From Buxus sempervirens (Eukaryota; Streptophyta; Magnoliopsida; Buxales; Buxaceae): a stretch of 64,000 bases of DNA. The position numbers and the translations under genes were made by a program. The notes under the pieces were generated by a model. It was given only the letters and a program-made list of their open reading frames with translations. It did not search any database and was not told the origin of the DNA. Of this stretch, positions 21,619-46,957 are shown piece by piece (the first letter of the stretch is position 1; each line of letters begins with the position of its first letter). The stretch covers positions 7,564,001 through 7,628,000 of the forward strand of contig OX387193.1 in the NCBI GenBank assembly GCA_947561395.2. The letters are read 5' to 3'.

Positions 21619-21696
21619 AAGAGGAAGAAGAAGAAGAAGAGGGGGAGGAAGAAGAAATGGTACTGAGGCTTGAAATATCAGAGGGAGGAACCTTTG

Positions 21697-21743
21697 TATG
21701 GCTTCATGGACCTTTTTTTTGATAAGTTGTATGGCTTCATGGA
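21697..21743. repeat. Direct repeat upstream of the subtilase gene
   Basis: TATGGCTTCATGGAC occurs at about 21697 and again about 32 bp later, separated by a T run, 80-125 bp before the subtilase start codon (gene on the minus strand). It may be a local slippage duplication; no regulatory role is shown. From 21750 to 23078 I see no gene, only A/T-rich intergenic DNA. Confidence 0.6.
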
Positions 21744-23639
21744 CAGTTATAATAAAGTGGGTGGTTGTGAATGACTCTAAAGGGTTAATTGTTTACAGAC
21801 ACTCTTCTCATCGACTCACTGAACTTTAGCTCTAATCGATGTATCGGACAGATTAAACGCACATGAAATCATGGACACGAGAACGTTGGCTGTGATGAAA
21901 TGGATGGATTAACCTCCCAGAATCCCCTAAACATAGCTGCAGTGAGAGAATTTTGCCTTTGGTATGAAAGAATCAACCACCGCCTCACCGTCAACATCTC
22001 ATTTCAGTAATAAATTGTTGGGTCCCTCATTACATGCTGCATTGAGTGGGGGCTCCTCGGTTCAAAAATAAAAGCCAGAGCCCTGTCTGTCTCTCATCTT
22101 AATAATTCTCTGCACATCCATTAGTGCTGTTACTAGCCGCTTACCACTTGGTTTCAACGACCCATGTCAGCGATGTCATCATGAGTATTTAAAGCATTCT
22201 TCACTCGGTTTATCACATTTCATTTTCATTCTTAGGATAAATTAGCGAAACCTTCCCATAGGTTTGCAGAAATTATATGTATCTTCTTCCACATCTTTAA
22301 AATAACACTTTCTTCCTTAAAGTTTGTAGAATGGTCATCCAAACTACTCTTCCATTAACTTGCTATTTAAGTTTTTTAATGCCAACAATCTTAAGTACAA
22401 AAGATGAATTTGTCCTTCAAGTTAATATTTTAGGGGATGAAATCATGATAATCATCTGCACTTTTTGATTGAATTGCAACTTGCTGTTTTTTTTTTTGAA
22501 GACCAATTGCAACTTGCTGTTAGGGTAGGATGTTTCTACGTGGAGCATTTAATGGTTAGTATTTTTCATTATTTTTGTATTTGTGTTATATGGGCTCACA
22601 TAGAAAAATACTAACGGTAGGCTGTTATTAACTGGAGCCTCCCACCCCACCAACAGGTTACAATTCAACCAAAAATTGTATATGATATTGTTCTATTTTT
22701 CGAGGAGTTAAAAAAAAGGAATATAAAGAAGAGAAGAGGTAATTTTTTTAAAAGAAAGGGGAAGCTAAAGAAAGAAATGGAGGTAGTTTTCTAATAGAGA
22801 AAATGACAGTTCAGCAAAAACAGAGAAAACTTTAATAACGATAAAGGGAAAATTGTTATTAGGGAAGCGTGAGGCAGTTATTTGTGACTAGCAGGGGTGC
22901 ACGTGAAATACTCCACGTAGAGAGAGGGAATGGGAAGAGGAGAAGTGAGCGGGATCAGTTTGTAATTGCCAGGGTTTTGAACATGGAGAGTTTTTGACTG
23001 GTGAAACCGTGTATTATTGAAACCCAAACAACATAGGATACGGGCATTTTGGAGAAGTCGTGCATAGTTTTAGACACGCTTCCTGTTAGCACTTGATTTT
23101 TGCACCCCCAAAATGGAGAAAAATGAAAAGTCAAACCCTAAGAGGGTCAAAAGTTTGACTTTTTGATTCAAGCAAATTTGACCATCAAACTTCATCTCAT
23201 TAAAAAGAGCATTTCAACACGATTCTAACGCAACTGAATTTGCTGGAATCGGAGTCCGGATGAGGAAGTTATGAGTCGGTCAAACTTTTGGGGAGCAAAA
23301 ATTTGACTTTTTGCTCGACCCCAATTCAGCTGCCCAAATTGATCCCAATGGATAAGTGATTCTGAGTTGATTCTAATAACACTAAGTTTGCTAAAATCGG
23401 ACACTAGGTGAAGAAGTTATGGGCAGTTGAAGTTTCAGAAAAACTGCCCGTGTGGCAAAAAGGCAGCAGAAAGCAGGATAAATCAATAAAATAAATAAAA
23501 TAAATGTATTTTTTAATATATTAAATATTTTAATTAAAAAATCTCGTTTTATAATAAAATAATCAAAGAAAATCGGATAAAAATCTTACAAAAAATCAAA
23601 TTTAATAAAATGTTTGAAATCCAACATTTTAAAAATGTA

Positions 23640-23880: not shown

Positions 23881-25448
23881 GAGGGGCCAGCCCCCCCATT
23901 TCAAGAAGCCAGCCCCCTTAAGCCCTCTCCCCCTCCTTTGACATTGCCACGTCCAAGCCCTGCCCAAATATTGTTGCTTCCAATACCAAACCATGAAATG
24001 CCCAAAATGCCCTTAGGCTACTCTTAAACCTTGCCCAAACTCTACCTTTTCACCCTTTGAGCATAAAAAACCAACAAACCTCTTTCAAATTCATTTCAAA
24101 GAATCCAACGGAGTGCGGAAGCGTTGTCAAAATTTCCGGAGAACCACAAAGTACAAAAACAAGCAAAGAGGTTATATTGTAAGTATTTCTGTAGACATAA
24201 GTAAAATGTGATTTCTTTCAATATCTCTTTGAATTTCTTTTCTACATCCTATTTTTACCATAACATATCTAACCCGTTTGCTGTTTGTTGTGCGCTACGA
24301 GAGATTTGGTTCAAGGTGGTTTCCCTATAAAGGGAAAAGAACAATCCTAAATAAAAAAGGGGCATTCAAACTAACTTTAAATTACCTTAACTCATTGTTT
24401 TGTTTTGTTTATTATGAGTGATTTATCCTCCATGTAAATTTGCTGTATCCCACATTCTTTCCCTCTCCTTCCCTTCTTGAGAACAACCATGAAAGGTTAA
24501 GGAAAAATGGTGGCTTCAAAGAATGCAAAGAGAAGGGAAAAGAGGCCATTTATGTCAAATGAGGTAAATGAAGCACCCTGAAGGAACTGGGAACTTCAAC
24601 AGAAGTTGCCGGAGCATCTAGGAGGCCAACTAAATTGATCCCAAGCAAATTTGGCATGAAACTGTAAAATCAGGTATGCCCGTATTTGCAGTGCGGTCTG
24701 GGAGTGCCTATATTCACTATACGGGCAAGCCTGAACCGTATTGCATTTACGGGCAAGGCCAGCCCGTATAGCAAATACTGGCAGCTTTAAAAATGACTTA
24801 AAAAATATAATTTTTGGCCCAGTTAGATCCGTTCCGACCCGAACCTGCTCGACTTGACCCAATAAGTTGCTTGGGCTACCTTGAGCCCATTTATGGACCA
24901 TGGGCCTAGACGGACCCACCAAGATACCCTGGGCCCACATTTTGACTGGCCTATACCAGACCCGTTTTCAACAAACGGGCCCGAGGCCACTTGACCCTTG
25001 GCTAATGGGCCAAATCCAAGCCCACTAAGTCCTAACATATGTAAAATAATTTAAATAACTTAGTAAATAACCAAAAAAGGGTTACCCAATAACCCTACTG
25101 TGCCCAAGCCCAAACTTGGCAACCCACAGGCCTTCCAACGGGGCTTGTATTCGACCCAGACGGCTTAAGTAAAAGGATAAAAAAAGGAATAAAAAGGGGC
25201 CCACACCTCCAGAGGGCCCCGCTAGACCCAAAAGAAAGCATGCTGGTCTAGGAAGGGTGAAAATTGACTCAAAACCAGGGAGACCCGAGGGACTTGTCAA
25301 GCCGCCGGGCCGAGCCGGGGTGTCTTCGGACTTCCCCGGATGTAACCGAGGACTTAGCTAGAACTCTAATAAGTCGCAGACCAGACTTAGACCCGGATAG
25401 GCAATCCTCGTGTCTGCCTGCACCTCTCGGGCTGTGGCGATTCTGAAT

Positions 25449-26552
25449 TAAGACTGTAAACGGAGCGAATACGAAGCGGATATGTATGAATCCGATTAAA
25501 ATTTAGGATATCTGTGTTCGTTTAACTATCCGACAGATCTTTCATTTGCCATACCAAGTCCGAATCCGATTGTTATTGTTAAATCCATATTCGTATCCTA
25601 TTTTATTCGAATCCGATTAGAGAAGAAGAAGAGATCCAAGGTTCCGATCCTGCTTTAATGGCGACGTTGAGAATGACAGAAATAGATCGAAACACGAAAC
25701 CGGAGAAGAAAAACTAATCCGCACGAAAATCCTCCCAAACTCTTCACGAGAATAATAAGATCAGGAATTTAAACGGATTCTTCAAAGAAGAAGAAACAAA
25801 TGCCCCGCTTTTATTATTTATTTTAAAAAGGAAAACAAAACAACACTAAAAATGAAAATAGAAAAGAAGCTTTGGTGAGACAAATCGAGTGGCCATGACC
25901 GTGATGGCTGGCGTTACCAGTTGTCGCCGAGCCCAAGATTTAGGCGAAATGGGGGTTTCGACCGAAAACCCCAAACAAGACCAAATGTGTGTACAATGGT
26001 CACGGACTCACGGTGACGGGAGCCAGTGGAAATCGATCTGAAGAGGGTGTTATAGCTGGAGGGAGCTACAGCCGACGATTGCAGTGAGTTACCGGAGACG
26101 ACTCCCAACTTGAGAGGAAGGTTTATACAAGAGAGAGTTTCCACTGACGCCGAGCACAGTCCTTCGTAGTTGCTGGAGACGAGAGAAAGTTGAGAGGAAG
26201 GTGAAGGTTTATACGAAAGAGGGTTTCCGCCGATGACAAGCAGCCACACAGCACAGTCGGTCGCTACTTCGCTTCAAGCCTCCGACAGTTCGACTAGGGC
26301 AAATATTAGATTTATATACGAGGATACAATGACTTAATTATCCTCAATAACTTATAAAATTTACAAACATGTAGATACTAATCGGATTCGGATCTTAATC
26401 GGACGGATATGGCCCTGATCCGAATCCGATTATAAACGGATCTGAAAATTGGATCCGACAGATTATTTAATCGGTTAAAATCTGATTAAATCGGATAATT
26501 TATTCGAAACCGGACGGTAAACGGGTCATGATCCGATCCATTTACAGTCCTA
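25449..26552. mobile_element. hAT-like element nested in the solo LTR
   Basis: 1,104 bp with ends TAAGACTGTAAACGGA and, as reverse complement of the right end, TAGGACTGTAAATGGA. Flanks TTCTGAAT (25441-25448) and CTCCGAAT (26553-26560) match at 6 of 8 bases. Subterminal DNA repeats ATCCGAT/ATCGGAT. No transposase was found; 25914-26249 is open on the minus strand but unrecognised. Confidence 0.72.
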
Positions 26553-27501: not shown

Positions 27502-27907
27502 AAAAGATAAAGGGTGAGAGGCATACACTAAGGTTCTGACACAAAAAAAAAAAAAAAAAAATCACTACCAAAAAACGACCAAGAGAACCGTTTGTTAAAA
27601 GTTATTACAATTACCATCCAAATATCATCATAAAACCTAACTAAAATAAAAAATCGAATAACTTTCATTTTGATCCGACTGCTGCTTTTAATTATGACCT
27701 GAAATTTTAAAGCAACAGGGTGAATATAACTCAATAAGTGGAGTTAATATACTCCGCATGCCTAAAGTGTAAAACTTTACTTAGTAAGTATATGTAACTA
27801 CACTCAATACAATACTTATAATATTCCTAGCACTAATCAAACAAGTGTTCTCAAAGCCAAGGTTCAATTCATACATACTACCAGGGTACAGTGCAATATT
27901 GCACTTA

Positions 27908-28097
27908 TCTATACTAATATATAAAGGGAATTGCCAAGGTTTTGACCTGATTTTCCATGCCCAAATTGCCCTTATTTTATAGATTTGTTATGCCATATAA
28001 CCATAACTAATCATGTTGGGGTGTTTTTCTAAGTGGACCCCGCAAAAAATATTTGCAAGTTAGGATTTCGCTACGCGTAGTCCGTGCATTCCCCTAG
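27908..28097 (+). mobile_element. Mini-Helitron, 190 bp
   Basis: The 5' end is TCTATACTAATATATAAAGGG. Near the 3' end is the palindrome CTACGCGTAG, followed by GTGCATTCCCCTAG. The insertion lies between A (27907) and T (28098), as expected for Helitrons, which make no TSD. It has no coding capacity. Confidence 0.75.
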
Positions 28098-31000
28098 TGC
28101 AGATGAAAGAGAAGAAAGTTAGATAACTGGCTGGAGAAGTAGGAATCGTTTGTACATGTTCAGATTTAAGGAAACTTCAAATGTATTTAAAGAGAAAAAG
28201 ATGACTATACCCCATATTAGTAAGCATTATCAATGATTTATAAGGACATTATAAACAAAAGGCTATAGTTTTTGGCATGCTTCCCAAGGAAGCTTCCCTT
28301 TTATATATTACTAGCAGAGTGCATGTGCAATACTGCACGATATAGTTCGGAAGTGGGTCAAATCCATGTACGTGGTTCACCTCTGGGAGAAGTTAGAAGT
28401 TATAATTGATGTTATTGTATATTGTATATAAAAGTGATGCTGTTTTCGTTTAGGGGAAATTTAACTAAAAAGAATAGAGAAAGCAAGAAATAAAATAAGA
28501 TAAGGAAAATAAAACTCCAACATTCTTTAGAAGCAGTCACGCACAATGCCTTGGAAACTATATGCACCAAGGAAGAAACAACAATTTGTTAATATTGTAC
28601 ACCAAACACCAAATTCTTTGACATAATGACAATCTACAGTCCTTGTAGCAACAACCTTTGGATTCGCAATTGAGACTGCCATTAGTCGTCCCATTGTAAA
28701 ATAAGTCATGGTTGAGCCCAAGCACAGAAAAATCACAAACAAATTCCACCCAGTGAAACTTGAGAACTATGATGTCATTTTGAACATCCATGAGAATACG
28801 ACAGAAATAAGTGACTTATATCCAAATAGAACAATTTCTTGCATGATATGGTAAACTTGGGACAATTGACTGGATTAACTCCATTCGTTTAGCTGCAAGC
28901 GGCAAGGGTATGATAGCAATCGGCAACCCTCAAGCTTCATGTCAGTACACTGCAAAAATTGAAAGAACAAATAGGATTTACCAGTAACCCTCTGGAAACT
29001 CAAAAGAAAATGGGTTATAAATTCCTGGCTTAATAGTTACCATCTGCGCACAATTTATTGCATAAGGAACAAACAAATTATCGATGACAACAAAAAAGAA
29101 AAAAAGTGCAGATGGCGAACTCGAACTTGACAACATCGGCTTCATCACAAACTGGTATCTTGATAAGCCTTGTTACACGAACTAATTGAAACAAAGAGTT
29201 GGAAGATCACCCACATGTGAAAATAGCAAGCTGGACCGCAGAAAAATGTGTGAAGTATGCAGAAAAAGAATTAGCTAACATACACAATGCAATATTGCAA
29301 AGTAGACAGTAATTGTTAACGTTGTCCGTTATTCCCAGCTTACTACATATCTATACTTAAATGGCATGGTTATGGAGGTTAACCTGATCCAACTCGCATT
29401 AATTTTAGTAGAGATATGCATTTAGATCTAGCGGAGAGGCACTTGCAATTTGCGTGATTTGCATCTACAATAAGGCAGTTTGCCATAAAAATATGAGAGA
29501 TGGTGAAAATGAAAAAGATGATGTTCAATGGGAAGGGATGCTTTGACTGGAAAAAAAATTCACACCATCATTAGCTTAATGTGTCTCTGCATGCTAAGTA
29601 GCATAAAAGCCTAAAACTTAAAAGAAGTAACGAATCAAAATTTCCAAAAGGACATGTAGTGAAAGGTACATTTTCAATCAAAACTTTCAATGATTCAACA
29701 GCAACTGAAGAGATCTTTTAGCATACTGATTAAACATAAGATAGCCGTGAAGAGGGATCCTTACAACAAAAATCAGAATCTGGTTGAGGGATTAATGTCG
29801 TGCCGATTTAGAGTGCAAGGTAGTTTAGGCATCACAGATTGGGGTGTGATTGGGTCTTCTAGTGCTTCTAAGATTTCTCTGCTACTTCCACTTATAGAAT
29901 AGGCCTTTCCAATAGGTGAAACAGGGTACTCAACCATCATGGTGTGTGAAGAACCAAAAATTTAATAAACACCAATAGTTAGAGCTTCAAGGAGATTTTA
30001 GAGAACAGATGCATTATAACAGGAGTTGATAGTTATTAGCTTTCATGTTGCAGAAAACTTTTGTACCACGGAAGGAAATTTTATATAAAATGCATTAAGA
30101 TGAACATACATTTCGAATGAATAACCCCACCTGTATAAGTAAAAAAAATTTCATTATGCAATTGTTGCAATACTTTTGTATTAAGATCACTCCAAATTCC
30201 CCGAAGCTTGCCGAAATGGAGTAAAACATATAACTAAAACCCACTATTTTTCATTTAAATTCAACACAACCCAAGGGATTAATTCAACCAATAATGATTC
30301 ATATAACATCACTCATTAATTATCCAATATGCTATCAATAATTCAGAAAATGATTCATGCTCTCAAACTTAATATATGTGCAATTGATGTTGGACGTAGC
30401 CAAAACCTGGGGATGAATGTTTAATGTCTAATTATGACTATGCCCATCTAAAACTAGTAAGGAAGAAGAAAAAATAAAGTCAAATTTTCTAATCATAGAC
30501 ATGGAGATCAATTACTATGGCCAACAATAAAATAATAGAAAGTAACAACTTGATATAAAACAAAAGAGAAGAATTTTTATGACTAACTACACATTAGTCA
30601 TCATGGACAACAAACACCGTGGTAGGGTGATTTATGTCTGCCTATCATGAACTCGCATCCTCTCCAACGCCCCCTCTCCTACAAATTTACAGCACCTATG
30701 ATTAAGCGACAAGTGTCCACCAAAAAGTGATGGAAACGTTAAACGTTTAGCTTTTATTTCTCCGTCAAATTCAAAAAAACACGTGGGTGTGCCTCCTCGG
30801 GTTAAAGTTTACTCGACTAACCCTCATCCCCAAAGCCCAAAAAGGTTTCTTGCCCCACTTCTTGTCTTCGTCCTTACCAAACACATTTATTTGAAGTGCA
30901 ACATCTGGGGGCCCAATGACCTGTAGGCCATGATTTAGTGTTTAGTCACTTCAACGTCCCCTGTGCCATGGCTTGTATTCTGCAAACCATCTGAAGAGGC

Positions 31001-32368
31001 CATGGCACAAGCTCTCAAGATTGCCAGCATCAATCCCCAAAAAACAGTAAGATAACCATAAAGCCATCTCCAAAGAAGTTAGCTGATTGAAAGCAAGCTA
31101 AAATGGCAAACAATTAATTAATTAATGAATTACTTGTTACATAAAAATTTTGTTATTATAACAATGAATGGGCATACAAGTATTAACACCATGATGCAGT
31201 GACCTGCTTACGATGAACATTCGGCTTCCACAAATAGATCAAACTCCTTCCCCTTTTAATAAAATATATGAGTGTTGCACTAAAATATATGAAATTTTCA
31301 ACCTAAAAGAAAATCTCTCAAAATAGAAAAATTGGAGAAGACAATTAAATATATTTGAATATCTTTGAACAATGTACATTCCAAATTTGTCACTTAGATA
31401 AATGTCCCTGGTTCTCTTGCCAAAAGGTCCGTTGTGATTGTTGAAGACTCGCTAAAACTTGAAGCCTACAAAACATAAACAAAAGGCAAAATAACAACAG
31501 ACCTGGCCTGGTCCTGATCAGTTAGAATTGTTTTGCCAAAAAGCCATGATTATTTTGCCTTTTGTTTAGTCAATTCAACGTAACTAAACACTAAATCATG
31601 GCCTACAGGTCATTGGGCCCCATGAGATGTTGCTGTGCGCACTTTGGCCGCGCTAAAAAAATGTGTTACATGTTTTATGGAGTCGCCACTACCTAAAATG
31701 GTGCAGGTAGACACCTTGTTTGATTTTTTGGTTTGCATCAATGATTCTGGATAAGTGACCTGATTACAACCCAGGGAAGTCCTTGAGCACCCTGGGTTGC
31801 CCCACCGAAGCGGGTTCCCTTAAATTAGTTGGATAATATTTGGGCTGATTTACTATTATATAATTTTTTTATCTTTTATCTTTTAAATATTTTTTATTTA
31901 TTTATTTTTTTATGATCACATGTGCATAAACATTGGAGGAATGGAGATTGCTATGCTACATCCTATACAAAATATAATACATATACAAAAAATCCAAAAT
32001 AAAGAAATCTAAATCAAATATTTCAAGATGGGGCAATGTACTTGGTTATTTCAAAAAAAAAAATTTTATTTATTTATTTATTATTATTTTTTATTTAACC
32101 AAGTCACATCATTTAATCTTTTATTTTTTTTATTGTTTTCTTATGTTTTTTCCTTTTTTTTCTTATGATAATTTATTTACACAAAGCATGGGTTAAAAAA
32201 ACTCAATCATATCTGGTCATTGAAAATTACACTTTATTTTTCATATTTTTTTTAACTCTTATTTCCAAGGATTTGGAGGCAAGGAGAGGTGTTATAAAAG
32301 TGACAAATGTTTAAGCATATGATCTAAAAAATAATTAAGAAAAATAAATAAATATGTTAGTTTGGCAT

Positions 32369-35300
32369 TGTCAGCACCAAGGTTTATAGTTTCGGATTTT
32401 GTAGCCCCGGCGATGCGTTTCGCCGGGGGTGTTTCCTCGGCGATTTGTTTCGAAATGTCGTCGAAACCCAGCGAAATTTCGCTGGGTTTCAAACGAAATT
32501 TTTTTAAGACCGAATCGCACAGGTGAAGATTCATTTCTCTGCTTCTCTTCTATCTTTGTATTCCTGATCTTGTTTTTCTTCTTCCTACCTTGCTTCGTTC
32601 CTTATTTCCGCATGTTTGCAATCCGAAACGAAGAGCTCGATGTCCTCATCCGACTAGGAGAGATGCAACGAAAGAGAACTTATCCCAAGGAGTAAACGAG
32701 AGAGAGAGATGGACAAAGCCCCAAATAGCGGGAGGAAACCAGCCAAACCTAGAAGAAGGGGAGGAAACCAGCCAAACCCAGAAGAAGAAGCTGGGACGAT
32801 AACCTTTCTCTCACAATCGCCGGCCTCGAGCTTCGCTCCACAATCGCCGAAAATTGCCTCACCTCGAGCTCCGCTCTCCTTCCTCTTTTACATCTCCTCG
32901 CGTGATTGGTCTCCAGAAGATGTCTTGCTTGCTTGAGCAACAAGCAAGGCTAATAGTAAAGTCTTTGGGGGCGTCCTTTTGGCCAAGTCAACTGTAGAGA
33001 GAGAGAGAGAGAGAAAAGATGTCTTGCTGAGCAACAAGTAATTTTTTTATAATCCCGATGTTCTTTGGGGGAAAAATTGCTTTTTTTCTTTATAATCGCC
33101 CTTTTGGCCACGTCAATTGTTCTTTGCTTGCTTGAGCAACAAGCAACAAGCAATTTTTTTGAAAACAGAAAAGTCTTTGGGGGCGTCCTTGTGGCCACGT
33201 CGAGAACTTTTTTTATAATCCCGATGTTATTTTCTTCAATTTCTAAACGTTCCGAATCCGCGGTCGAAATTTCGTTGGCACGCCGATGTGTGCCGAAGAA
33301 ATTTCGGCAAAACATAAAAAAAATCCTTTTTTAACCAAACAACAGTTAAATCGTTTTTCTGCCATTCCGGCGATTTTTCGTTGTCGTGCCGTTTTTTTCA
33401 ATGAACGGCACGCTTGTGGATATTGAAACTGTAATCCTTGGTCAGCACCTCATTTTTGCGCCCGCGAAAAAAATGAAAGAATGAAACCCTAATTGGAAAA
33501 GTCAAACCTAAGGGGTCAAAAATTTGATTTTTTGATTTGGCGTGAATTGACCACCAAACTTTATACCATTGGATAGAGGATTCCGATACGGTTCCAACGG
33601 CACCAAGATTGTCCAAATCGGAGTCCAGATGAAGAAGTTATGAGCTGGTCAAAACTGGGAATAGAAAAAATCGACTTTCTGCTAAAACCCAGATCAGTTG
33701 TCTGATTTGGCCCCAGCAGAAAGAGCATCTCGACACGATCCCGACGCAACTTAGTTTACCGGAATCAGAGTCCCAAATAAGGAGATATGAGCAAAACCGG
33801 CTCTGGGACGCGACTTTGCACTTCTGCTAAAAAATCCGAATTTTCTGCTAAACTCTGGCTCAGTGGATAGAGAATCTTGCACTGATTCTAACGCCACTAA
33901 GTTTGCTAAAATCAGATACCGAATGAAAGAGATACGAGTAGTCAAAGTTTCGGAAAATCTGCACATGTGACAAAAACAGCAAAAAGAAAAGAATCTTCAA
34001 TTAAAATAATAATATTTTCATACAACACCTAATTAAGAGGTTTAAAATAAAGGAAAAAGAAAATAAAAAAATAAAAGCACGCATGTGCTCAAAACCAAAA
34101 AAAATCCAATTAAAATAATATTAAACACATAAATATCAAGCAAACTAAATAAATAAAAATTAAAACCAAAAATAAATTTTGCAAATGGGGATGACGTGTC
34201 CCCATGAGTTGTATATTACCTGGATGACAATAAGAGTTATCATTACCTTTCATTAAAAAAAAACCATGAAACCATAAGATTTTGGGTTTTAGTTATAATA
34301 TAACAAATATTTACATTTTAGTCACATTTCATTATTCACTATAAAAGCATTCGACCCTTATCCATCTCGACAACCTTTCTTCCAAGTCTTTTTCCCCCTT
34401 TTCATCCCCACCACATCTCTGAAAAACAGTGAACGTCCAAACCTTCCTCCCACCTCCAAACTTATTTCTTATTCCCATTTTGCCCTCTAAGCAATCACTT
34501 TCACTCTTTTACTTTCTCTAATCTCTAGAAACCCAACCAAAGACCATTTTTCTGGAATTTTTGAAACATTCCAAGGTGCTGTCCACCATCACATAAGGAT
34601 CATCACCTGTCTAAAAGCAAAGGTAATGTAATAGTAAGTATATTTGTTATCTTGTATTTCATATATGTTGAAATAAAACCATATCTCCTCTTGTATGTCT
34701 TGAAATATATTTCTTGTCGTTTCTTCTAACTACTTTGTCTCTTTTGGCATACTAATGGAGTCCCCATGGTAAGGGGGACTCCCCGTATGAAAGATGGGAG
34801 GAAGAGAGAGTCATCACCCAATATAAAAGACTTATGAAGATCACTTTAGATCATGTCCTACTACTGATTTATTCTTCTTTTAGTTATAAAAGGGGTTTGT
34901 CATCTTAAAAGATCCATTGTACCCTTAATTTTTCTTTTCCCCCTTTCCTTTCACTAGATATGTGGTCATAAACATTAGGTTTTATTCATGATCATGCATA
35001 GTAGGACCAGCTCATGCATCTACACTCACATCACTAGGTTTACTATTTCTTATATACACTTGTCTTTTTTTTTGTTTGTTTCCATACACACACCCACGAC
35101 TAGCATATATATGTTTAAAGTTCGTTTTAATTTACAGTCACCCACTGTAAATATCCATAGAGAAGCTTTATTTTAATTCCTTTTCGGTTGTTGTTTAAAT
35201 CACTGGCATAAATTTGAACTCTTCTCTTTAAGCATGTTAGATCTCTTTATTAGGTTATTTCTTTATGTCTCATTTTCATAGCTCACATGCATATCATTTA

Positions 35301-36503
35301 TTTTAGTGTTACTTGCATATGCCTTCCCTGTCCGTAATTCAATTGCTCAATATTCGTCTAAATGGATGATCGATTGGAGGCCTTTTGGGGCCATCTATCT
35401 TGCTCCTTCAAGAAGAGAAGAAGAAAATTATATTCGGCTTCCAACAGGGATTTCCAAGATCCCTGTTTTGATGTTCATTGATTGAACAAGACCAAGAATA
35501 TCTTTTATTTGAAAAATATCATAAGGAGAGGCCATCGGAACCAAGACTAGATATGGATGCCACTGTGAGTTCACTCTGGAACTCACAGCAGGTCGCGGAC
35601 AACCCTGGAAGAAGGCAGAGCAAGCTCCCATGGCCATTTTGGCTATTCTGTGAAATCGGACCCGAACCGCAATAGGTCTGCAGTCAGACCCAAATTGCAA
35701 ACAAAGTACGGTTAGGCCACTACAAATTATAAAAATTCATTTTTTAGGACCCGGTTGGACCCGATCCGACCCATTGTAATATAAAATGAACCTATTGGGC
35801 TTCTTGGGTCAAACCCAACCCATTTTAAGACTTAGGCCCACCTGGACCCATCAAAGCTTTAGTGGGCCTTCCAACGAAGCCCATTACCAGTCCGGCCCAA
35901 CCAAAGCCCGTTTTGATAAATGGGCTTAAGGCCACTTGCTTAAAAATCTATGGGCCATCCCAAGCCCAATGGACCTTTAAAAATATTTAACCCACTTTGA
36001 TTAAATGCATGTTTAATTAACCCAAAATTAAAATAAGCAAAATCCAATAAGGGTTACCCAATAACCCTCATGGGCCATGGGCTTGACTTAAAGCTCAGCT
36101 TGGCTACCCATGGGTCTTCCAATGAGGCCCATACCCGACCCACTTAATAAAAGGTTAATAAGATAAAAATTAAAACAAAAGGGACTTACACCTGCATGAA
36201 GTCCCACTAGACTTAACTTAATACATGCTGGAATAGGACAAGGGTGAGTATAGTTGATTCAAACTAGGGTGACCTGAGAGACCTGCTGAACCGGCGGGGC
36301 GGACCGGGGTGTCTTCGAACTTCCCCAGATCGTAACCGAGCACTTAGCCAGAATCTCAAGCCGCAGACCAAAATAGACCCGGTTAGGTTACCTTGTGTCA
36401 GCCTGCACCTCATCAGGCGGTGGCGACTTCAGAATTCAGTTTTTTAGGAGGCACGCACGACCCCACGTGCGTCTCGTTGTGCGATTGATTTCAGGTGCGC
36501 ATA
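32369..36503 (+). mobile_element. Solo LTR (plus), nested in the minus solo LTR
   Basis: Starts TGTCAGCAC at 32369; the sequence resumes after an hAT-like insertion with CTCATTTTTGCGCCC. It ends GGTGCGCATA at 36503. A perfect TSD GGCAT flanks it (32364-32368 and 36504-36508). A TATA box TATAAAA lies at 34340-34346. The late CCTGCACCTCATCAGG...GTGGCGACTTC block matches the solo LTR at 23084. Net length about 3.06 kb. No gag or pol. Confidence 0.85.
32378..33440. mobile_element. hAT-like element at the innermost level of the nest
   Basis: The termini CAAGGTTTATAG and, as reverse complement of the right end, CAAGGATTACAG are flanked by a perfect 8-bp TSD GTCAGCAC (32370-32377 and 33441-33448). 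The insertion lies one base inside the LTR start. It contains a 28-bp perfect palindrome at 32463-32490 and a GA run near 32998-33014. No transposase was recognised. Confidence 0.85.
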
Positions 36504-39500
36504 GGCATATTATCTAAAAAAGTAAGAAAAGAATAAAAATCTGATTATTATAATTAAGTATGTTAATTAAGCATATTATCTAAAAATAATTAATAAATTA
36601 AGAAAAATTAAGCATGTTAGTTAATCATATTATCTAAAAGGAAATTAAGAAAAAAAATTAAAGAAATAACATGAAAGAAATAAAAGAAATAACAAATGAA
36701 AGCTAGAGTTATTAAAAAGGTTTTAAAGAAAAACTAAAACATGAAATAAAATAAGTTCTTTTTAAATCCTTTAACTTTTCAGAATAACAAATTAAGCACC
36801 CTAGTTTATCAAATGCTCAAAATTCAACCCACATATCCATTCATTCAACAGATTCGGCCGGATAAGAGACATGCTTTGTATACTTTCATTTGTCAATTTA
36901 ACAACACTGAAAAATTCAAATTCGGCCATAACAGTGACATGATTTGTATTATTTTCATTTGACAATCTAACAACATAAAAAAAATATTTGATTAAAGAAT
37001 CAATAAACAAAATAATGAAAAAACCTGGTATGGAGTCGATTTTCCGGAAACTGATGTGCTCAACTCTAGATGTTCCCTTATTTCTCTTGCACAACCTCCT
37101 TCTACCTTTCTTCTTTTGATCATCTCCCCCCCTTTGCTCCCAATTTCAAGCCTTTTTATAGAGAATTCCCACCCCTTCAACTTCTTAGCTTCTCTTCTTA
37201 AACACCTAAACTCCTAACTCCTCTTCTTCCTCTCTTGAACCTCTCCTTTCCTTAACTTCTCCTCTTAAACACCTAAACTCCTAACTCCTCATCTTCCTCT
37301 CTTAAACCTCTCATTTCCTTAACTTCTCCCTTTTCTCTCTTAAACACCTAAACTCCTAACTCCTCTCTTAACCACCATCATTCATTTAGGTTTGGTCAAA
37401 GTCTATTTTGTCCCATATTTTTTAGACTTATATTTTTTTTAAACTTGGTCTCAATATTTCAATGGAATATGAGTTGGACCAATTCGTCTAACTCATTTCT
37501 CTTTGTTTATATTTTTTTATTTTCTTTTAATCTCAAAACTTTTATTAATTTTGTTATTAAATTTTTTATTTATTTGCATAACAAACGTCATTAGGAAACT
37601 TATTTATTTACTAAAAGAACCCCAAAAATTTTAATTTATCATTGGCTACATGGCACCTATCATGACGTACACGTGGCTGCCATTTGGCATCTAATTTCGG
37701 TTTTATAAAAACCCCCAAACTACCCTTTATTTCTTTTATTCATAACTTAGTCGTTTGAGATCCGATTTGAGCACGGTTTGGTGCATCGGAATCGGCTCAG
37801 AATTCTTTTTATTATAGGCGTGTTATTTCAAAAAGACGGGTCCACTATAAAACCTTAATTTACGTGCCCACATATATGCCGGTTTAAGATATGCTTCTTA
37901 GGCAATTCTATGATGCAAAAATGGGATGCTGACAATTGCATTTCAAATAAATGTGTTCCATGAGGAAGAAGACAAGAAGGGGGCGGGAAAACTTTTTAGG
38001 TTTTGGGGATGAGGGTTAGTTGAGTAAACTTTAACTTGAGGAGGTACACCCACGTGTTTGTTTGAATTTGACGAGAAACAAAAGCTAAACGTTTAACATT
38101 TCCATCACTTTTTGGGTGAACATTTGTTGCTTAATCATAGGTGATGTAAGTTTATAGGAGACGAGGCGTTGGAGAGGATGCGGGTTCGCCTATCATAGAT
38201 ACCCAGCACATCAAATACAGAAGAGACATTATAACAAACCAAGTTCTTCTATTTTGTTTCCCAGAAACCCACAGGATGATGAGGTCTATGGTGTCTGTAA
38301 AGTAAGAGAAATCCGGGATAGGCATGCTTTTAGTACACTTCATATAAAATTTCCTTCCTAATTATTTCTCTTGCTTTATGTAGAGATTTCGCTTAAAAAC
38401 CAAATTGATCTACTGATCTTTGTGGTAGAAAAAGGTTTGCCAACTCACTTGTGCAAACAATGCAATCTTTCGTTTGAACAAAAGCCTAGATCTCTTTCTC
38501 TCTCTCTCCCCCCTCTCTCTACTTTAACAAATGAATAAATACCTTTCTTTCATTTTTTTCTTAAGTCTTAATAGCTTGTTACATCCCATACCCCATTCTG
38601 CTAGACCGTTGAGCCCTTGCTCTGATAGTGGGTTTATTTCCATAAATAGATGAAGAGGAAAGCCGCACCTGTCGGGAGTCTGATCTCCTCAATGGGCCAC
38701 CGAATGGTTGACGACGGATGTCGATTGCTTTGTCTGTGAGTGTGCAGTCGATATAGTGGTGATGGTTGTTTGGAAGTTTGAGGCAGAGATCAGATATTAG
38801 TAGAGGAGGGGAAATCAACCCCAAAACCTTATTTAGGATGATCGGTGGAAATATTGGATGTTTGTTGTGTAGGGATTGTCATCTCCTGCAAACGGATACC
38901 GCGCGAGACAGCAAAAGCATAGTAAGAGATAAGGTCGATTAGGGTGTATGTGAGTAAAAGAATTGAAATTAAATTACCAGTTATAGGTGAGTTGAAATGG
39001 GAAGCATGACTGGTACCTTGCGCATGGAGAGTAGACAATGTAAGCATTGTTTGTAGATGTAAGGCTTTTGTGCAGGGCTCGAACGATGAAGAGTAGGATG
39101 TTGCGCGAGATAGGCGATTCTTAGGAAAGTATTGTTTACAATGTGCGTAATCATCGGAAAAGGCAGCATCGCAAGGTTAACGGAGGGTAGAAGACAATGT
39201 GGGAGGGGAACAGTTGAAGAAATTGATTGTTAGGTTTTAGAAGAGTTGACGATGTGGGACTGGGAGGGAACAGGGAGGAGTCGAGAAAACTAATTGTTTG
39301 GCTTTAGAAGAGCAGTATTGACCTTTTTATCCTTTTAATCAAAATTTTAATTAGTGAGATTTGGCAATGGTGCCAAGGGCTATTTTGTAAAGTTGAACAT
39401 GTTGCTTGACACGATTCCCAAGGGAACAATTCCCGTTATATATAGTATATAGTATAGATATAGATAGATTTACATATATAACCTGTCCACTGTCATCCGT

Positions 39501-39779: not shown

Positions 39780-42700
39780 ATGGCGGCATTGACACCGCTT
39801 CTTCATGCTTCCACCAGGCTCGCCTACCCTTCTCTGCGAACATTTCCTCATAAAGTTTCCTTCTCAATTCCCTCTCTGCAGTTCTTCAGCGTAAAAAGCA
39901 GAAGAATCTCTTCAAAAATGTCTGCATCACAAGTATCCTCGCTGCTTACTCACACTATCAACTTGCCCGCACAAAGCCAGCCTATCGAGATCGTCGCAGC
40001 TCCTGGGGTCTCCGATTCTGATTTCAGGCATACCACTTTTTTCCTATGTTTCAAATTCATATGCAGCTATTCGATCCGTAATACTAATTGCTTGATGAGA
40101 AACCCTTCAATACTTTCTTCATTTAAAACCCTAGTTGAATTCGGAAATATCTGTTTGTTGGAAATGGTTTTGTAGGAATGCTATTGATTCTTCGTTATTC
40201 AAGCAGTGGTTGAAGAATCTGCAGAGCGAAAAAGGGCTTTTAACTCGTGGAGATACGTCTCTGAGACGAGTACTTGTTCAGGTAGCTTTCTGACTTCCGA
40301 TTCGTACTATTATTGTTATTGTTTGATTAATCGAGTCACGATAATAGCTGATCTTAAAATTGGTTTTCATGGAATTCTAATCATTGAATAGAAATAGTTT
40401 TATGATCTTTACGAGTTTGAATTGTCTTTTGGTTGGTAACAGGGAGTAGATATGTTCGGTAGTCGTGTTGGTTTTCTGAAGTTCAAAGCTGATGTTCTTG
40501 ATAACAAAACGGGTCAGAAGGTATTTTATCAGTATTACCTTTATCCTGGATTTCAGATTCATTGCCCGAGTGATCTAAATGATTGTTATAACATGAAGAA
40601 ACTCATACTCCAATGGAATGGGAATTTCAGGCCGAATACAACTTCATTATCAACCCTTACATTATGAATAACGATCAGTATGTTTTAAGAGGCTTGAATG
40701 CACGACTGGAGTTGGTTGAAATTTATTTTGATGACAAGAACTTATCTGCAGACTAATATGCATGAATTTTGAAGAATACATCAAAGGAAAGAGACACAGA
40801 GTTAGAAACATGTCAAGTGTGTATGCATACATATTGTACTGAAAATTACATAAAGATAATACAGTGTTTCTAAATGTAATGACAATGGTGTTGTCAGTGT
40901 GTGCCTCATGTCAATGCCTTGTGTCCTTAATTTCAATGTCTGAATTTAGCTTCAGTAGGTTGTGTAGCACATTTCTTCTAATGCTTTTATGTATGGTTTC
41001 TGTGCATGCTTGCTTTACAGTTCTGTTATGAATTAATATATGTATAGGTTCCAGGTATTGTATTCGCACGAGGACCAGCTGTTGCTGTGCTTATCCTTTT
41101 AAACTCAGGAGGAGAAACATATGTTGTGCTTACTGACCAGGTAATATTTTTTTCGGTTGTTACTGCTGTTTGTGAATTGCTTGATGCAGTCTTTGTTTAT
41201 GTGACAAGATTTTAAGTTGAGAAGGTTTATCTCCATCCTTTGGATCTCTGATAAAATGTACTATATGTATGTAAGGTTAGGGTCCCTGTTGGTAGGAGTA
41301 TGTTAGAATTGCCGGCTGGAATGTTGGATGATGACAAGGGTGATTTTCTTGGCACAGCAGTTCGTGAGGTCTGTCTCTATCCCTCCCTCTGTGTGTGTGG
41401 GTGTCTATATGCAAGGGTGGTTTTCTCTGCAAGGATGTGTATATGTGGTCTGCTATATTCACATTCATAGAAAAGTAAAAGAATGGCATATAGGAATTTT
41501 TATCTTATGAAGCATTTAGTTGTGACACTATTATTTTATTGTTCTAGAACTTGCTCCTACTTGCTATACTGGTTTTTTATTTTACTTCAACACCAACATG
41601 TAAGTGGAGCACTGCTTAACGAATCTTATGGAGCATAACCGGTCCTAACGATTTCATCATTCTTGTTATTACTATTACTACTACTGCTGCTGCTGCTGCT
41701 ACTACAACTATTATTATTATTATAATGAATGAACATTTGATATAGGCTCTTGAGGCCCTCATTTTCACCGAGGAGGCCCTACTTTTCACCACTCTCATAA
41801 ATTCCATAATCAACCTGGTAGCTATGACTTGAATTTGTTATCAACTTATTGTGAATGAACATTTGATATAGGCTCTTGTACTCTAGTTAGGTACATCTAA
41901 TGGGAGTGAGACTTCAGCACTCATCATAAGGATTCACAAGCTGAAAGAAGTCATCGTGCATACTGGGGATTTCATTAATTAAGGGCATGAATTTAAATTT
42001 TTATTCTGAACTCTCACATCAGTACTAACATAGTGTATACTATATATATATATATATTTTAAGTTACTGTCTTAATATCTAGATTTTTTCTCACATCAAA
42101 TTCCAACTACAAATTAAAAGCCATTTCACTTTTTCTCTCTTATTAAATTCAGAGAGAATTTAGAGAGAGAGACTTATATGCCATTTATGTCCAATTGAAA
42201 TTCAACATCTTGATGTGCCTGTTCTTATCTCATTGTCTTACAGTCAATTTTGTTATCTTTGGTCAATTATTTACAACGAGCGAGATACCAGTGAGGATGT
42301 TGTACATAGAATTAGAACTGATGGCGTAAGTTGAGTGGTAAATCTTGAGCATTATGTGATCATGTCCCAAACAAATTTAAAAAGAAAATATTATGAGATA
42401 ATTTTTAGGCCTATTATGATGTATGTCTTTGAATGTTGAACTGAAAGAAAGAAACATATGTGTAGGATGAGTGTCACTCAGATGTGGATGTTGAGCTGGA
42501 AATTATGGAATATTAAGAAAGATAAATCATAGGCATATTCCTAGAGTGGTTAGGTGCTGAACAGATAGATGATAAGATAATGAAAGTATGTTAAGATGGT
42601 GCGTGTGAAGAGAAGACCTTGTGAGGCAGCTGGGAGTTGTGAAAGGTTACACATTGAAAGACTCAAGAGGTCAAGGGGAAGACAAAAATGAACATAGATG

Positions 42701-44063
42701 GAGTCAGTTGGAAAGGATTTGAATGCCCTTAAGCTGACTATAGATATTTCATTTAACAGCTTGGGATGGGGAGGTAAGATGTGTGTTGTTGGCATGAACT
42801 AGTTGGGTGTGGTATTTGGTTATTGGTTGATTGATTGCGTGTTATTCATTGTTATCATCCTCAACATCATTATCATCATTACTTCTATTATCATTTTTAT
42901 TTCGTTCACACAGTTATGGAGCCATGTGTGGTCCTGTGGACTGATGCTCTATAGTTGCTCTCACTTTAATAAAATCTTAAGATTTAATGCTCACACTTTT
43001 GCTCTTTTACATAAGCCTCTTTTACTGGCATTGGAACATTAGTTGGATAAATTTGAAGTTTTATTTTTGCTTTATTACTAGAGTTACATCATATTTCAGG
43101 ACTTATACATACAGTTACGTTCTAGATTAATGTTGGAATGTTCTGAATTATTTGACTGCTCTGGGTGTGGGGTTCTTATATATATTTTAAATTAACTGAG
43201 GTCCGCAGATTTAACTCTGCCCTAAACTATCACAGACAAATTTATTTGGTAGTTTCTTGTAGTCTGATACCGTTTATTAAATCTTGTAGATTGGATATAC
43301 TCTCCTGCTTGGCTGAGAAATTTGGATCCCCTTATATATATCAGATCTTAAGTTTAATCCCATGTAGTTCTTCGGTTTTGATGAAGCTGAGCAGATGATT
43401 TTGACAGGTTGAAGAGGAGACTGGCATTAAATTGAAACTGAAAGACATGGTTGACCTCACAGGATTCCTGGATCCATCAACTGGGGGCAGAATTGTTCCT
43501 TCGCCAGTATGTTAGCTGTAGTTTTATTCTCAAGTATAGGTTAAATTTCCTCCATTAAGGGTTTAAACATACCAAGTCTATATCTAGAATATAGAAAGTC
43601 CACCTTATGATTTTACCAATTATGCAGCCAGTTCTTCCTGGCCTTTGTTGTTAGGATTCAGCATCAAATGCATTTTGTTTTTTCTTGGCTTTTCTTTTTA
43701 TGATTTACTGAAACAATCGTTGCACCTAAAAGCTTAAGTTAATAGGTGAAGGTGTAACTATGTACTTAAGGGGGGCTCGAAGACAATATCTCAATGTTTA
43801 ATGTTCTCTTGCCTATTTATTATTAGGGTGGCTGTGATGAGGAAATCAGCCTCTTTCTGTACAGAGGAAATGTAAGTCATGAAGTTATTACACAGCTTCA
43901 GGGAAAAGAGACGGGTCTCCGTGATCATGGTGAGATAATCAAGGTGCATGTGGTTCCCTATAAAAAGCTCTGGCGTGCCACATCTGATGCAAAAGCTCTC
44001 ACTGCCATCGCACTGTATGAGATGGCCAGCAGAGAAGGGCTACTGCCTCCTCTGTTAAACTGA
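39780..44063 (+). CDS. NUDX14: Nudix hydrolase 14-type ADP-sugar diphosphatase, plastid
   Basis: Seven exons: 39780-40027, 40176-40281, 40443-40520, 41048-41140, 41276-41368, 43408-43506, 43827-44063; predicted 317 aa. NUDX14-type enzymes hydrolyse ADP-glucose and related ADP-sugars to AMP and sugar-1-phosphate in plastids. Residues 1-46 (Ser/Arg-rich, up to MSASQ) look like a transit peptide; Met47 is an alternative start. The Nudix box is split between exons 5 and 6: GMLDDDKGDFLGTA, then REVEEETGI, with the REV-x-EE-x-G core intact and Lys where the consensus has its first Glu. FLKFKADVLD, VPGIVFARGPAVAV and GGCDEEISLFLYRG match plant NUDX14 order and spacing. The frame across intron 1 requires a GC donor (AG|GCATAC). 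Introns 2-6 have GT-AG. Intron 5 holds a LINE remnant and a trinucleotide repeat. Confidence 0.93.
41660..41722. repeat. Trinucleotide microsatellite in NUDX14 intron 5
   Basis: An imperfect run of ATT/ACT, CTG and ATT triplets (ACTACTGCTGCTGCTGCTGC then TATTATTATTATT). It is intronic and likely polymorphic. Confidence 0.85.
42430..42830 (+). mobile_element. LINE remnant in NUDX14 intron 5
   Basis: Broken plus-strand frames read KTQEVKGKTKMNIDGVSWKG and other pieces resembling the post-RT C terminus of plant RTE-type LINEs (RPKMTWMES...DLNALKLT style). It is heavily mutated and has the same orientation as the host gene. Confidence 0.5.
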
Positions 44064-45538: not shown

Positions 45539-46957
45539 TTACGAACCGGTCAAAAAACGTTTTTCCGGCGAACGCATCTCTTCATCTCCGGCGACGATCG
45601 GATACTGGTAGATGCAGTCGCACCATGGCCCGTTCTTGGCTTCATCAGCAATAGATCTCAAACACTCCCAAACCACGCTATTGCACTTCGGGCCACTCCC
45701 CATCCCAAGCTGCAACACCTTGTCACCTTTCTTCATCATCTCCTTAGCCTCCATGTAAGCCAACTCGTACCACATCGACGCCGATGACTGGTTCCCAAAC
45801 CGGTGCAACGTCATCATCGCTGCTTCCGTCTCTCTCTCACTCAGCTTCAACCCCTTAGCTATCTCTCTTATCACCGACTTCCCCGACGTCGGTATACAGA
45901 AGTGCTGTATCACTGATTTGAAATCAGGGACGTAGGTCTCCATTGATGGGTTAATGAATATCTTGCTTAGTACAGAAAGACTGTGATGAATTTTTTCCAA
46001 CAAAGGCAGGATCGATGCACCCAGAATGGTGATGTTCGACCGGAGAGTCTCGACGGCAACTTGCAGTAAGTCCCGGTTTAGGGTAACCCCAGTTATGCCT
46101 TGGGAGTCCTCTTCACGTATTGCCGAAAAGTAAGCTTTGTCGTCGAAGGTTCTCTGGGTTCTCACTGTGTGGAAAAGTCTGTATTTGGATTTCTGCTTTG
46201 CTTCTTTTCTGTTTGTAAGCAGAACTGCCGCGCTGCCCATTCGGAAGAGACAGTTGAGGAGCAACATGGGTCGCTCGTTACCTGGGTACCAACCAGTGGA
46301 GAGGATCTCAGTGCTGAGAATGACTGCGTAGGAGTTCTTGTGAATCTTTAGGAGATTTCTAGCAACGTCGACTGCAAGTGCACTGGCACTGCAACCCATT
46401 CCCGAGAGATTAAAGCTCTTGATATCAGCTCTCATGGAGTATTTGTTGACGATAATGGAGGAGAGAGAAGGGGAAGGACAGAAACCGCTACAGTTGACTA
46501 TGAGGATGTCGACGTCCAAAGGTGAGATCTTAGTTTTGGAGAGAAGGTCGTCCATGATAGGGAAGAGGTTCATGTGGGATTCTTCGATGGATTCTTGTTG
46601 ATGGGTTCTTGGTGGAATGTAGTGCAAGAAAGGAGGGAGGTAGGTCATTTCTCCTTGTCCTGAAGAGTAGAGAACTTTGGCCATGAAAGCGATGCTTTCT
46701 TTGTCGAAGCATTTAATCATGGTAGCGTGTTCGATGAAGGTTGAGAAGGGCACTCTGCAGTAATTTGGTGGCTTCAGACATGAGAAATCGACCAGATAGA
46801 CAGCAGAAGGCTTTGAGAGGAAGTGATTGAAGGCGAAGAAGAGGAGAGAACATGCCAGTGGAATGAGATGGAAGATGAGTCTGCATTTGTAGAAGACAAA
46901 ACAAGCTTCAATAAAAACGTACAGAAGCACTATAGCAGAAAGTCCTGGAAAGTCCAT
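45539..46957 (-). CDS. 3-ketoacyl-CoA synthase (VLCFA condensing enzyme), altered active site
   Basis: Intronless, 472 aa from ATG 46957; an upstream GTG-started reading is ignored. KCS enzymes condense malonyl-CoA with long-chain acyl-CoA in the ER, the first step of very-long-chain fatty acid elongation for waxes, suberin and sphingolipids. Two N-terminal hydrophobic segments (about 5-24 and 27-47) fit the usual ER anchors. The FAE1/CUT1-type core begins YLVDFSCLKPP. Cys189 lies in SGMGCSASALAVD. His385 and Asn389 are in TLHRFGNQSS. At the position of the FAE1 catalytic His (second His of HFCIH) the sequence is HFCIP, Pro356 (His352 to Asn389 keeps the family spacing of 37). RTH is also RTQ (Gln272). 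The C terminus has the usual GSGPKCNSVVWE. The frame is intact, so it may be expressed; whether it is catalytic is open. Confidence 0.9.
   Translation of the reverse strand: MDFPGLSAIVLLYVFIEACFVFYKCRLIFHLIPLACSLLFFAFNHFLSKPSAVYLVDFSCLKPPNYCRVPFSTFIEHATMIKCFDKESIAFMAKVLYSSGQGEMTYLPPFLHYIPPRTHQQESIEESHMNLFPIMDDLLSKTKISPLDVDILIVNCSGFCPSPSLSSIIVNKYSMRADIKSFNLSGMGCSASALAVDVARNLLKIHKNSYAVILSTEILSTGWYPGNERPMLLLNCLFRMGSAAVLLTNRKEAKQKSKYRLFHTVRTQRTFDDKAYFSAIREEDSQGITGVTLNRDLLQVAVETLRSNITILGASILPLLEKIHHSLSVLSKIFINPSMETYVPDFKSVIQHFCIPTSGKSVIREIAKGLKLSERETEAAMMTLHRFGNQSSASMWYELAYMEAKEMMKKGDKVLQLGMGSGPKCNSVVWECLRSIADEAKNGPWCDCIYQYPIVAGDEEMRSPEKRFLTGS

What the first reader, a model, noticed from the sequence alone, without database searches (positions are those of the whole stretch)
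27881..39464. Six-level transposon nest with recognisable boundaries at every level
Order from outside in: old Helitron, younger Helitron (28311-39458), MULE (9-bp TSD GCCTATCAT), minus solo LTR (GTTGC/ATTGC), plus solo LTR (GGCAT), hAT-like element (8-bp TSD GTCAGCAC). Each insertion can be removed in turn and the host termini rejoin, giving a relative chronology. Removing the LTR restores the MULE inverted arm, and removing the hAT-like element restores the LTR start.
Basis: partly seen in the sequence, partly recalled or inferred. Interest (0 to 1): 0.75.

Follow-up and report, generated by a model that had tools for sequence, protein, structure and literature searches.

The report
Seven-element plant transposon nest
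Seven mobile DNA elements have landed inside one another just upstream of what looks like a plant gene, and other copies of these elements in the same genome support where they start and end; the nest is unusually clean, but nesting of this kind is well known.

Summary
Places lacking the inner element were found for MULE-in-Helitron (2 places), minus LTR-in-MULE (4 of 4 full MULE copies), plus LTR-in-minus LTR (40 of 41 rows) and hAT-like-in-plus LTR (18 of 19 loci, two of them identical).

Three corrections. (1) There are seven elements: a 190-bp plus-strand Helitron (27908-28097) sits inside the outer Helitron. (2) Both large Helitrons run on the minus strand, and the younger entered 6 bp inside the older one's 5' terminus. 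(3) Containment does not date arrival here: an element can move with its cargo, the solo-LTR conversions are unordered, and similarity to other copies does not track depth.

The nest ends 315 bp upstream of the ATG of a NUDIX-domain gene. It is an ordinary product of recurrent insertion; wheat chromosome 3B nests reach 8 layers (PMC4290129). One mildly interesting point: 3 of 29 outer-Helitron relatives also carry another Helitron-like 3' end at their 5' terminus (0.09 expected), in line with a published preference of Helitrons for sites near other Helitrons.

The parts
27881..39464 (-). Outer Helitron. 3' end CTGG at 27881 (reverse complement), 5' end TCTATA at 39464-39459; own length 246 bp without inserts. 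Host site A^T.
   Evidence: 29 related loci, 76-82% identical, of a roughly 245-bp family with starts such as TCTATACTATATATAAAGGGAAG (L024) and ends in a hairpin plus CTRR|T in many copies; 3' hairpin in the window copy; flanking A and T. The 5' hexamer is separated from the rest by the young Helitron.
27908..28097 (+). Mini Helitron, 190 bp: TCTATACTAATATATAAAGGG ... CTACGCGTAG ... CCCCTAG, at A^T in the outer Helitron.
   Evidence: 23 of 42 non-self rows reach within 7 bases of both ends (the query ran 18 bp past each end). 21 of 29 outer-Helitron relatives align across the site in one piece without it; 3 more alignments end 2-3 bases past it and 5 stop before it.
28311..39458 (-). Young Helitron. 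3' end hairpin GTGCAgtatTGCAC plus CTAG at 28311 (reverse complement), 5' end TCTATACTATATAC at 39458; own length 3,600 bp without the MULE. At A^T, 6 bp inside the 5' end of the outer Helitron.
   Evidence: In 7 of 7 held relatives the flank is unrelated and ends in A (T after the 3' end in element orientation); 6 of 7 keep CTAG, L004 does not. 31 of 42 non-self rows begin at 28311, the first base of the query. Left end and right arm occur together in order and orientation within 12 kb in 5 row pairs, about 0.016 expected; 3 row pairs lie otherwise.
30640..30648 (.). Target-site duplication GCCTATCAT, left copy (MULE)
30649..38187 (.). Non-autonomous MULE with long inverted arms; own length 1,233 bp; arms of about 300 bp (30649-30949 against 37940-38187 plus 31580-31633)
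   Evidence: Four other full copies. Site without MULE at C4:51821059-51821662 (91% over the whole 602-nt flank join) and C11:42589373-42589677 (88%, positions 265-564).
38188..38196 (.). Target-site duplication GCCTATCAT, right copy (MULE)
31629..31633 (.). Target-site duplication GTTGC, left copy (minus LTR). The other MULE arm also reads GTTGC (as GCAAC).
31634..37934 (-). Minus-strand solo LTR; own length 2,161 bp
   Evidence: 29 of 41 non-self rows end exactly at 37934, the other 12 from 2 bp before to 13 bp after it. The right arm runs through the site uninterrupted in 4 of 4 full MULE copies. The end at 31634 was not tested against other copies of this LTR; it rests on the duplication, the MULE arm and the uninterrupted MULE copies.
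37935..37939 (.). Target-site duplication ATTGC, right copy (one base differs from the left copy)
32364..32368 (.). Target-site duplication GGCAT, left copy (plus LTR)
32369..36503 (+). Plus-strand solo LTR; own length 3,064 bp; begins TG, ends TA where relatives end CA
   Evidence: 18 of 19 related loci begin at the same TG (L079 and L080 identical). 3' end GTGCGCACA in L078, L088 and L029. 40 of 41 rows of the minus-LTR family run through the site without it at 91-97%.
36504..36508 (.). Target-site duplication GGCAT, right copy (plus LTR)
32370..32377 (.). Target-site duplication GTCAGCAC, left copy (hAT-like); bases 2-9 of the plus LTR
32378..33440 (.). Non-autonomous hAT-like element, 1,063 bp, ends CAAGG ... 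CCTTG
   Evidence: Related places share the termini; L066 has a perfect 8-bp duplication, GTTTGGAC; L040, the other held copy with both ends, has none that is clean.
33441..33448 (.). Target-site duplication GTCAGCAC, right copy (hAT-like)

Best explanation
The stretch 27881-39464 is a nest of seven transposable elements built by independent insertions. It began with a 246-bp Helitron in host DNA 315 bp upstream of a gene's ATG. That Helitron received a 190-bp Helitron (27908-28097) and, 6 bp from its own 5' end, a 3.6-kb non-autonomous Helitron. The 3.6-kb Helitron received a 1.2-kb MULE (9-bp duplication). The MULE received an LTR element, now a solo LTR on the minus strand. Inside that lies a second LTR element, now a solo LTR on the plus strand, and its first ten bases received a hAT-like element (8-bp duplication). 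Shown: boundaries, duplications, A^T sites, and relatives lacking the insert for five of the six insertions into other elements; for the sixth, the young Helitron, the rejoined outer 5' end fits its family. Inferred: that the solo LTRs arose by recombination within one element, and that each insertion happened at this locus.
For: Boundaries and duplications. Outer family, 29 relatives. Mini family. Young 3' end, unrelated flank ending in A in 7 of 7; both ends together in 5 row pairs. MULE: four full copies, two sites without MULE. Minus LTR: absent from 4 of 4 full MULE copies; end at 37934 exact in 29 of 41 non-self rows. Plus LTR: start in 18 of 19 loci (two identical), 3' end in three loci, site without it in 40 of 41 rows. 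hAT-like: termini and an independent 8-bp duplication. MULE arms rejoin at 270 of 299 positions.
Against: The host flanks have no second copy in this genome, so the empty site of the whole nest was not seen: the flank join matched only the window itself plus two weak partial places. The outer 5' end rests on 6 bp in a TCTA-rich stretch, and relatives have C where the rejoined site has T or nothing. The young Helitron's 5' end has no near copy: best non-self match 75% over part of the query. Three row pairs of its two ends lie in other arrangements. One minus-LTR duplication base differs. L040 has no clean 8-bp duplication. The retroelements' internal regions were not examined, so 'solo' rests on length, duplications and continuity with related LTRs.
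Confidence: 0.94

Rival explanations
1. Part of the nest was assembled elsewhere and moved here as a unit, for example the MULE with its LTRs inside, or the young Helitron with the MULE inside. Containment order would stay right but arrival order here would not.
For: Containment alone cannot exclude it. Helitrons and MULEs can carry foreign DNA (general knowledge; Pack-MULEs in passages of PMC3903597).
Against: No second copy of a composite was seen in these calls: 4 of 4 full MULE copies lack the LTR, two places resembling the young Helitron around the MULE site lack the MULE, and 40 of 41 minus-LTR rows lack the plus LTR. Only the best candidates are scored, so a rare second copy could be missed.
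Confidence: 0.06
2. There is no outer 5' hexamer: 39459-39464 is host TCTA-repeat sequence, and the outer Helitron is a 5'-truncated piece to which the young Helitron is joined head to tail. This concerns one boundary only.
For: The hexamer lies in ATAGATAGAT. In four relatives (L010, L012, L028, L034) another Helitron-like 3' end abuts the 5' terminus by eye; in L012 the join is directly onto TCTATAC. Head-to-tail Helitrons are known in maize (PMC2267711 passages).
Against: Rejoining gives TCTATA|TAATATATAAAAGGGAAG, which resembles TCTATACTATATATAAAGGGAAG of L024, and the host then rejoins as ...TACTA|TAGATT..., again A^T.
Confidence: 0.12
3. The arrangement is an assembly artefact.
For: Repeats are prone to misassembly; reads were not available.
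Against: Every junction carries a duplication or A^T signature of the right kind, which chimeric joins would not be expected to produce.
Confidence: 0.01

Closest known systems
Nested transposon clusters of wheat chromosome 3B (PMC4290129)
   Same: Successive insertions into older elements, resolved by rejoining interrupted copies; up to 8 layers reported (passages seen).
   Different: Here the layers come from four kinds of element (Helitrons, MULE, LTR elements, hAT-like) within 11.6 kb; that paper highlights 320 clusters larger than 100 kb.
Nest-resolving programs REANNOTATE and TE-nester (PMC2672092, PMC6911290)
   Same: Order of insertion inferred from containment (passages seen).
   Different: Those studies work on annotated repeats at genome scale; here single boundaries were checked against other copies.
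Adjacent and self-inserted Helitrons in maize and fungi (PMC2267711, PMC5148889)
   Same: A Helitron placed at or near the 5' end of another (passages seen).
   Different: Here the insertion lies 6 bp inside the 5' terminus rather than immediately adjacent (maize) or 2 bp upstream (FoHeli4).

Membership tests
Helitron (three elements) | 5' TC and 3' CTRR termini | tested here: met
   Outer TC/CTGG, mini TC/CTAG, young TC/CTAG; ends shared by relatives, though L004 has lost the CTRR end
Helitron (three elements) | Insertion between A and T without target duplication | tested here: met
   A and T flank all three; the flank ends in A in 7 of 7 young relatives, window + strand view
Helitron (outer and young) | Hairpin a few bases before the 3' end | tested here: met
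   Outer z = -2.67, 3 of 200 shuffles fold as well; young z = -1.92, 11 of 200
Helitron (mini) | Hairpin a few bases before the 3' end | tested here: inconclusive
   z = -0.92, 31 of 200 shuffles fold as well
Helitron (three elements) | RepHel protein | tested here: not met
   21 of 21 open stretches of 50 aa or more in the young Helitron gave no Pfam match above a family's cut-off; two weak ones below it, DUF7088 E 0.033 and DisA E 0.038. The other two elements are under 250 bp. Non-autonomous copies lack it, so this excludes autonomy, not membership.
MULE (TIR type) | 9-bp target duplication | tested here: met
   GCCTATCAT on both sides
MULE (TIR type) | Long terminal inverted repeats (100-500 bp in PMC3903597 passages) | tested here: met
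   About 300 bp, 270 of 299 ungapped positions identical
MULE (TIR type) | MURA-type transposase | tested here: not met
   4 of 4 open stretches of 50 aa or more in 30649-31633 gave no Pfam match; at 1,233 bp this is a non-autonomous copy, and no autonomous partner was sought
hAT | 8-bp target duplication | tested here: met
   GTCAGCAC; GTTTGGAC in L066, but not clean in L040
hAT | Short terminal inverted repeats | tested here: met
   CAAGGTTTATAGTTTC against CAAGGATTACAGTTTC
hAT | hAT transposase in the element or an autonomous partner | tested here: inconclusive
   11 of 16 open stretches of 50 aa or more gave no Pfam match; no partner was sought. Hence 'hAT-like'.
Solo LTR | TG...CA ends with 5-bp duplication and no internal region | tested here: met
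   Ends and duplications. The plus LTR ends TA in place of CA and the minus duplication has 1 of 5 bases changed. Window 33709-36102 aligns in consecutive blocks to L071 1501-3877.
Solo LTR | Parent element with two LTRs exists | tested here: inconclusive
   Same-strand LTR places about 10-11 kb apart on C1 (14938821/14948962) and C11 (10244442/10255140); the DNA between was not read
Ty3/gypsy | Internal coding order | not testable with these tools
   No internal region here; open stretches near related LTRs were listed, not classified

The most novel reading that the evidence does not exclude
The AT-rich 5' terminus of this small Helitron family is a landing pad for other Helitrons. In the window and in 3 of 29 relatives (4 by eye) another Helitron's hairpin-CTAG end is fused there, against about 0.09 expected. 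In the window both elements point the same way, so read-through from the inner 5' end to the outer 3' end could move the whole composite.
Probability: 0.35. Interest if true: 0.4.

Novelty: new member of a known kind. Interest (0 to 1): 0.25.

Why it matters
It is a compact, well-bounded test case for nest-resolving software, since four kinds of element each leave a different signature. It also places an 11.6-kb repeat block 315 bp upstream of a gene, which is testable for effects on expression. Mechanistically nothing new is needed. The recurrent Helitron join at Helitron 5' ends could be counted genome-wide to measure target preference.

Tried and rejected
Gene capture by the young Helitron: 21 of 21 open stretches of 50 aa or more gave no Pfam match above cut-off, so not supported by protein domains; captured non-coding or broken sequence is not excluded. 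The C4 copy was considered as a donor locus: it is collinear with part of the young interior, but unrelated sequence begins about 82 bp from where the 3' end should be. Donor and interrupted copy cannot be told apart.

Dating by divergence: rejected as a clock. Nearest-copy identities over long rows are outer 82%, mini 78%, young 88% at the 3' end and 91% inside, MULE 93%, minus LTR 93-97%, plus LTR 92-96%, hAT-like 84-85% (short rows reach 94%). They rise inward at first, then fall at the hAT-like element, and they measure family history, not insertion time.

Whole-nest empty site by a paralogous host segment: none. tRNA and Rfam scans of the window: nothing. Classifying the LTRs to superfamily from open stretches in related loci: uninformative. 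A PDB sequence search with one exon piece of the neighbouring gene gave one weak hit, E 0.02, to a SEC20 protein. Three single exon pieces of that gene gave no Pfam match; four pieces that I trimmed and set end to end matched NUDIX. Off by one: searches used 27909-28098 for the mini Helitron; one search corrected this to 27908-28097. Rows given: 33 of 42 non-self rows, all 52 non-self rows, and 4 of 42 non-self rows.
Full report
SETTING. The window is bases 7,564,001-7,628,000 of contig C19 of an unnamed 676.5 Mb genome in 247 contigs. I take it for a plant from its genes and repeats; the species was not established.

CHECK OF THE OBSERVATION. GCCTATCAT and GTCAGCAC each occur only at these two places between about 27,000 and 40,000. 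Leaving out inserts and one duplication copy gives own lengths of 1,063 (hAT-like), 3,064 (plus LTR), 2,161 (minus LTR), 1,233 (MULE), 3,600 (young Helitron), 190 (mini Helitron) and 246 bp (outer Helitron).

HELITRONS. Both large Helitrons lie on the minus strand: their CTRR ends with hairpins are on the left and their TC ends on the right. The outer one belongs to a family of about 245 bp; 29 related loci at 76-82% identity were held. 23 of 42 non-self rows reach within 7 bases of both of its ends, although the query ran 18 bp further each way. 21 of 29 outer relatives align straight across its site; 3 more end 2-3 bases past it and 5 stop before it. The young Helitron's 3' end is shared by 7 held relatives whose flanks are unrelated and end in A in 7 of 7; 6 of 7 keep CTAG. 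31 of 42 non-self rows begin at its first base, which is also the first base of the query. Its 5' end is less well supported: the best non-self match to the right end is 75% over part of the query. The left end and right arm occur together in the right order and orientation within 12 kb in 5 row pairs from four left-end places, against 0.016 expected; 3 further row pairs lie in other arrangements.

HELITRON INTO HELITRON. Rejoining the outer element across the young one gives TCTATA|TAATATATAAAAGGGAAG, close to TCTATACTATATATAAAGGGAAG of L024, and removing the outer element leaves host ...TACTA|TAGATT.... All three sites obey the A^T rule described in PMC4778049 (passages). A mechanical scan found a hairpin-CTAG|T end near the 5' terminus in 3 of 29 relatives (L010, L012, L034), against 0.086 expected from 47 such sites in 727,504 bases of both strands. 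L028 looks the same by eye but failed the scan's perfect-stem rule. The query ended at the 5' terminus and the 29 are the best-scoring of a capped list, so the excess is suggestive only. A 2025 paper states, citing Yang and Bennetzen 2009, that Helitrons insert preferentially near other Helitrons (PMC12477314 passage); PMC2267711 and PMC5148889 describe adjacent or self-inserted cases (passages).

MULE. Four other full copies exist. A query made of the two flanks without the MULE matches C4:51821059-51821662 over all 602 positions at 91% and C11:42589373-42589677 across the junction at 88%. In these places the surrounding sequence is present and the MULE is not.

MINUS LTR. In 4 of 4 full MULE copies the right arm runs through the LTR site as one block. 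Joining the flanks gives an arm matching the other arm at 270 of 299 ungapped positions, and the other arm reads GTTGC (as GCAAC), so the ATTGC copy probably carries the change. The LTR boundary at 37934 is exact in 29 of 41 non-self rows; the other 12 end from 2 bp before to 13 bp after it. The boundary at 31634 was not tested against other LTR copies.

PLUS LTR. 18 of 19 related loci start at the same TG; L079 and L080 are identical throughout and count once, and L071 is uninformative. Related LTRs end GTGCGCACA (L078, L088, L029), while the window copy ends GTGCGCATA, followed by GGCAT. In the minus-LTR family 40 of 41 rows run through the insertion site at 91-97% identity; the remaining row covers only query positions 2-51. 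Some rows may be the two LTRs of one element, so 40 rows are not 40 independent insertions.

hAT-LIKE ELEMENT. Relatives share CAAGG ... CCTTG ends, and the copy in L066 has its own perfect 8-bp duplication. L040, the other held copy with both ends, has none that is clean. 11 of 16 open stretches gave no Pfam match, so the name is 'hAT-like'. The insertion falls on bases 2-9 of the LTR, which the 18 informative loci hold without a break.

WHAT THE ORDER MEANS. Outer, then young, then MULE, then minus LTR, then plus LTR, then hAT-like element is a strict containment order; the mini Helitron is only known to be later than the outer one. It is not a full history. An element may move with an insert inside it; no composite copy was seen, but searches score only the best candidates. 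Each LTR element could have become solo before or after receiving its insert. Nearest-copy identities do not follow depth (see Tried and rejected).

SURROUNDINGS. The nest ends 315 bp before an ATG at 39780. Exon-like pieces downstream, trimmed and set end to end by me, match the Pfam NUDIX domain at E 2.2e-15. Whether the nest affects that gene is unknown.

PLACE IN WHAT IS KNOWN. Nested transposons are standard in plant genomes. PMC4290129 reports 30,199 nested insertions with up to 8 layers on one wheat chromosome (passage). PMC2672092 and PMC6911290 describe programs that resolve such order (passages). [quoted passage not shown] Papers were searched by topic; since the species is unknown, no search for a prior description of this locus was made.

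VERDICT. A correct and careful reading, with one element missed and the chronology stated too firmly. An ordinary product of repeated insertion with unusually clean boundaries.

Noticed in passing
25449-26552: Another probable nested DNA transposon (1,104 bp, inverted ends TAAGACTGTAAA/TAGGACTGTAAA, possible 8-bp duplication TTCTGAAT/CTCCGAAT with 2 mismatches), apparently inside an LTR related to the plus LTR (25065-25452 is 71% identical to 36031-36439).
   Followed up: partly
39780-44060: Host gene with exon-like pieces matching the Pfam NUDIX domain when set end to end; its ATG is 315 bp from the end of the nest.
   Followed up: partly
19270-21792 minus: Uninterrupted subtilase reading frame (Peptidase_S8, I9, PA and fn3_6 domains).
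   Followed up: no
45539-47068 minus: Reading frame matching FAE1_CUT1_RppA.
   Followed up: no
49993-53511 minus: Two abutting reading frames separated by a stop that look like a copia-type retroelement (by eye only, no family search).
   Followed up: no
L010, L012, L028, L034: Another Helitron-like 3' end lies directly at the 5' terminus of outer-Helitron relatives; in L012 and L028 a TCTATA-type start also follows the 3' end, suggesting longer arrays.
   Followed up: partly
G000:C4:51821059-51850460: Three copies of part of the young Helitron's interior on one strand within about 30 kb; in the one read (L089) unrelated sequence begins about 82 bp from where the 3' end should be.
   Followed up: partly
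L079, L080 (G000:C1:60576739 and C1:59700407): Two LTR loci about 0.9 Mb apart are identical over all 3,911 bases held, a recent duplication or an assembly duplicate.
   Followed up: no
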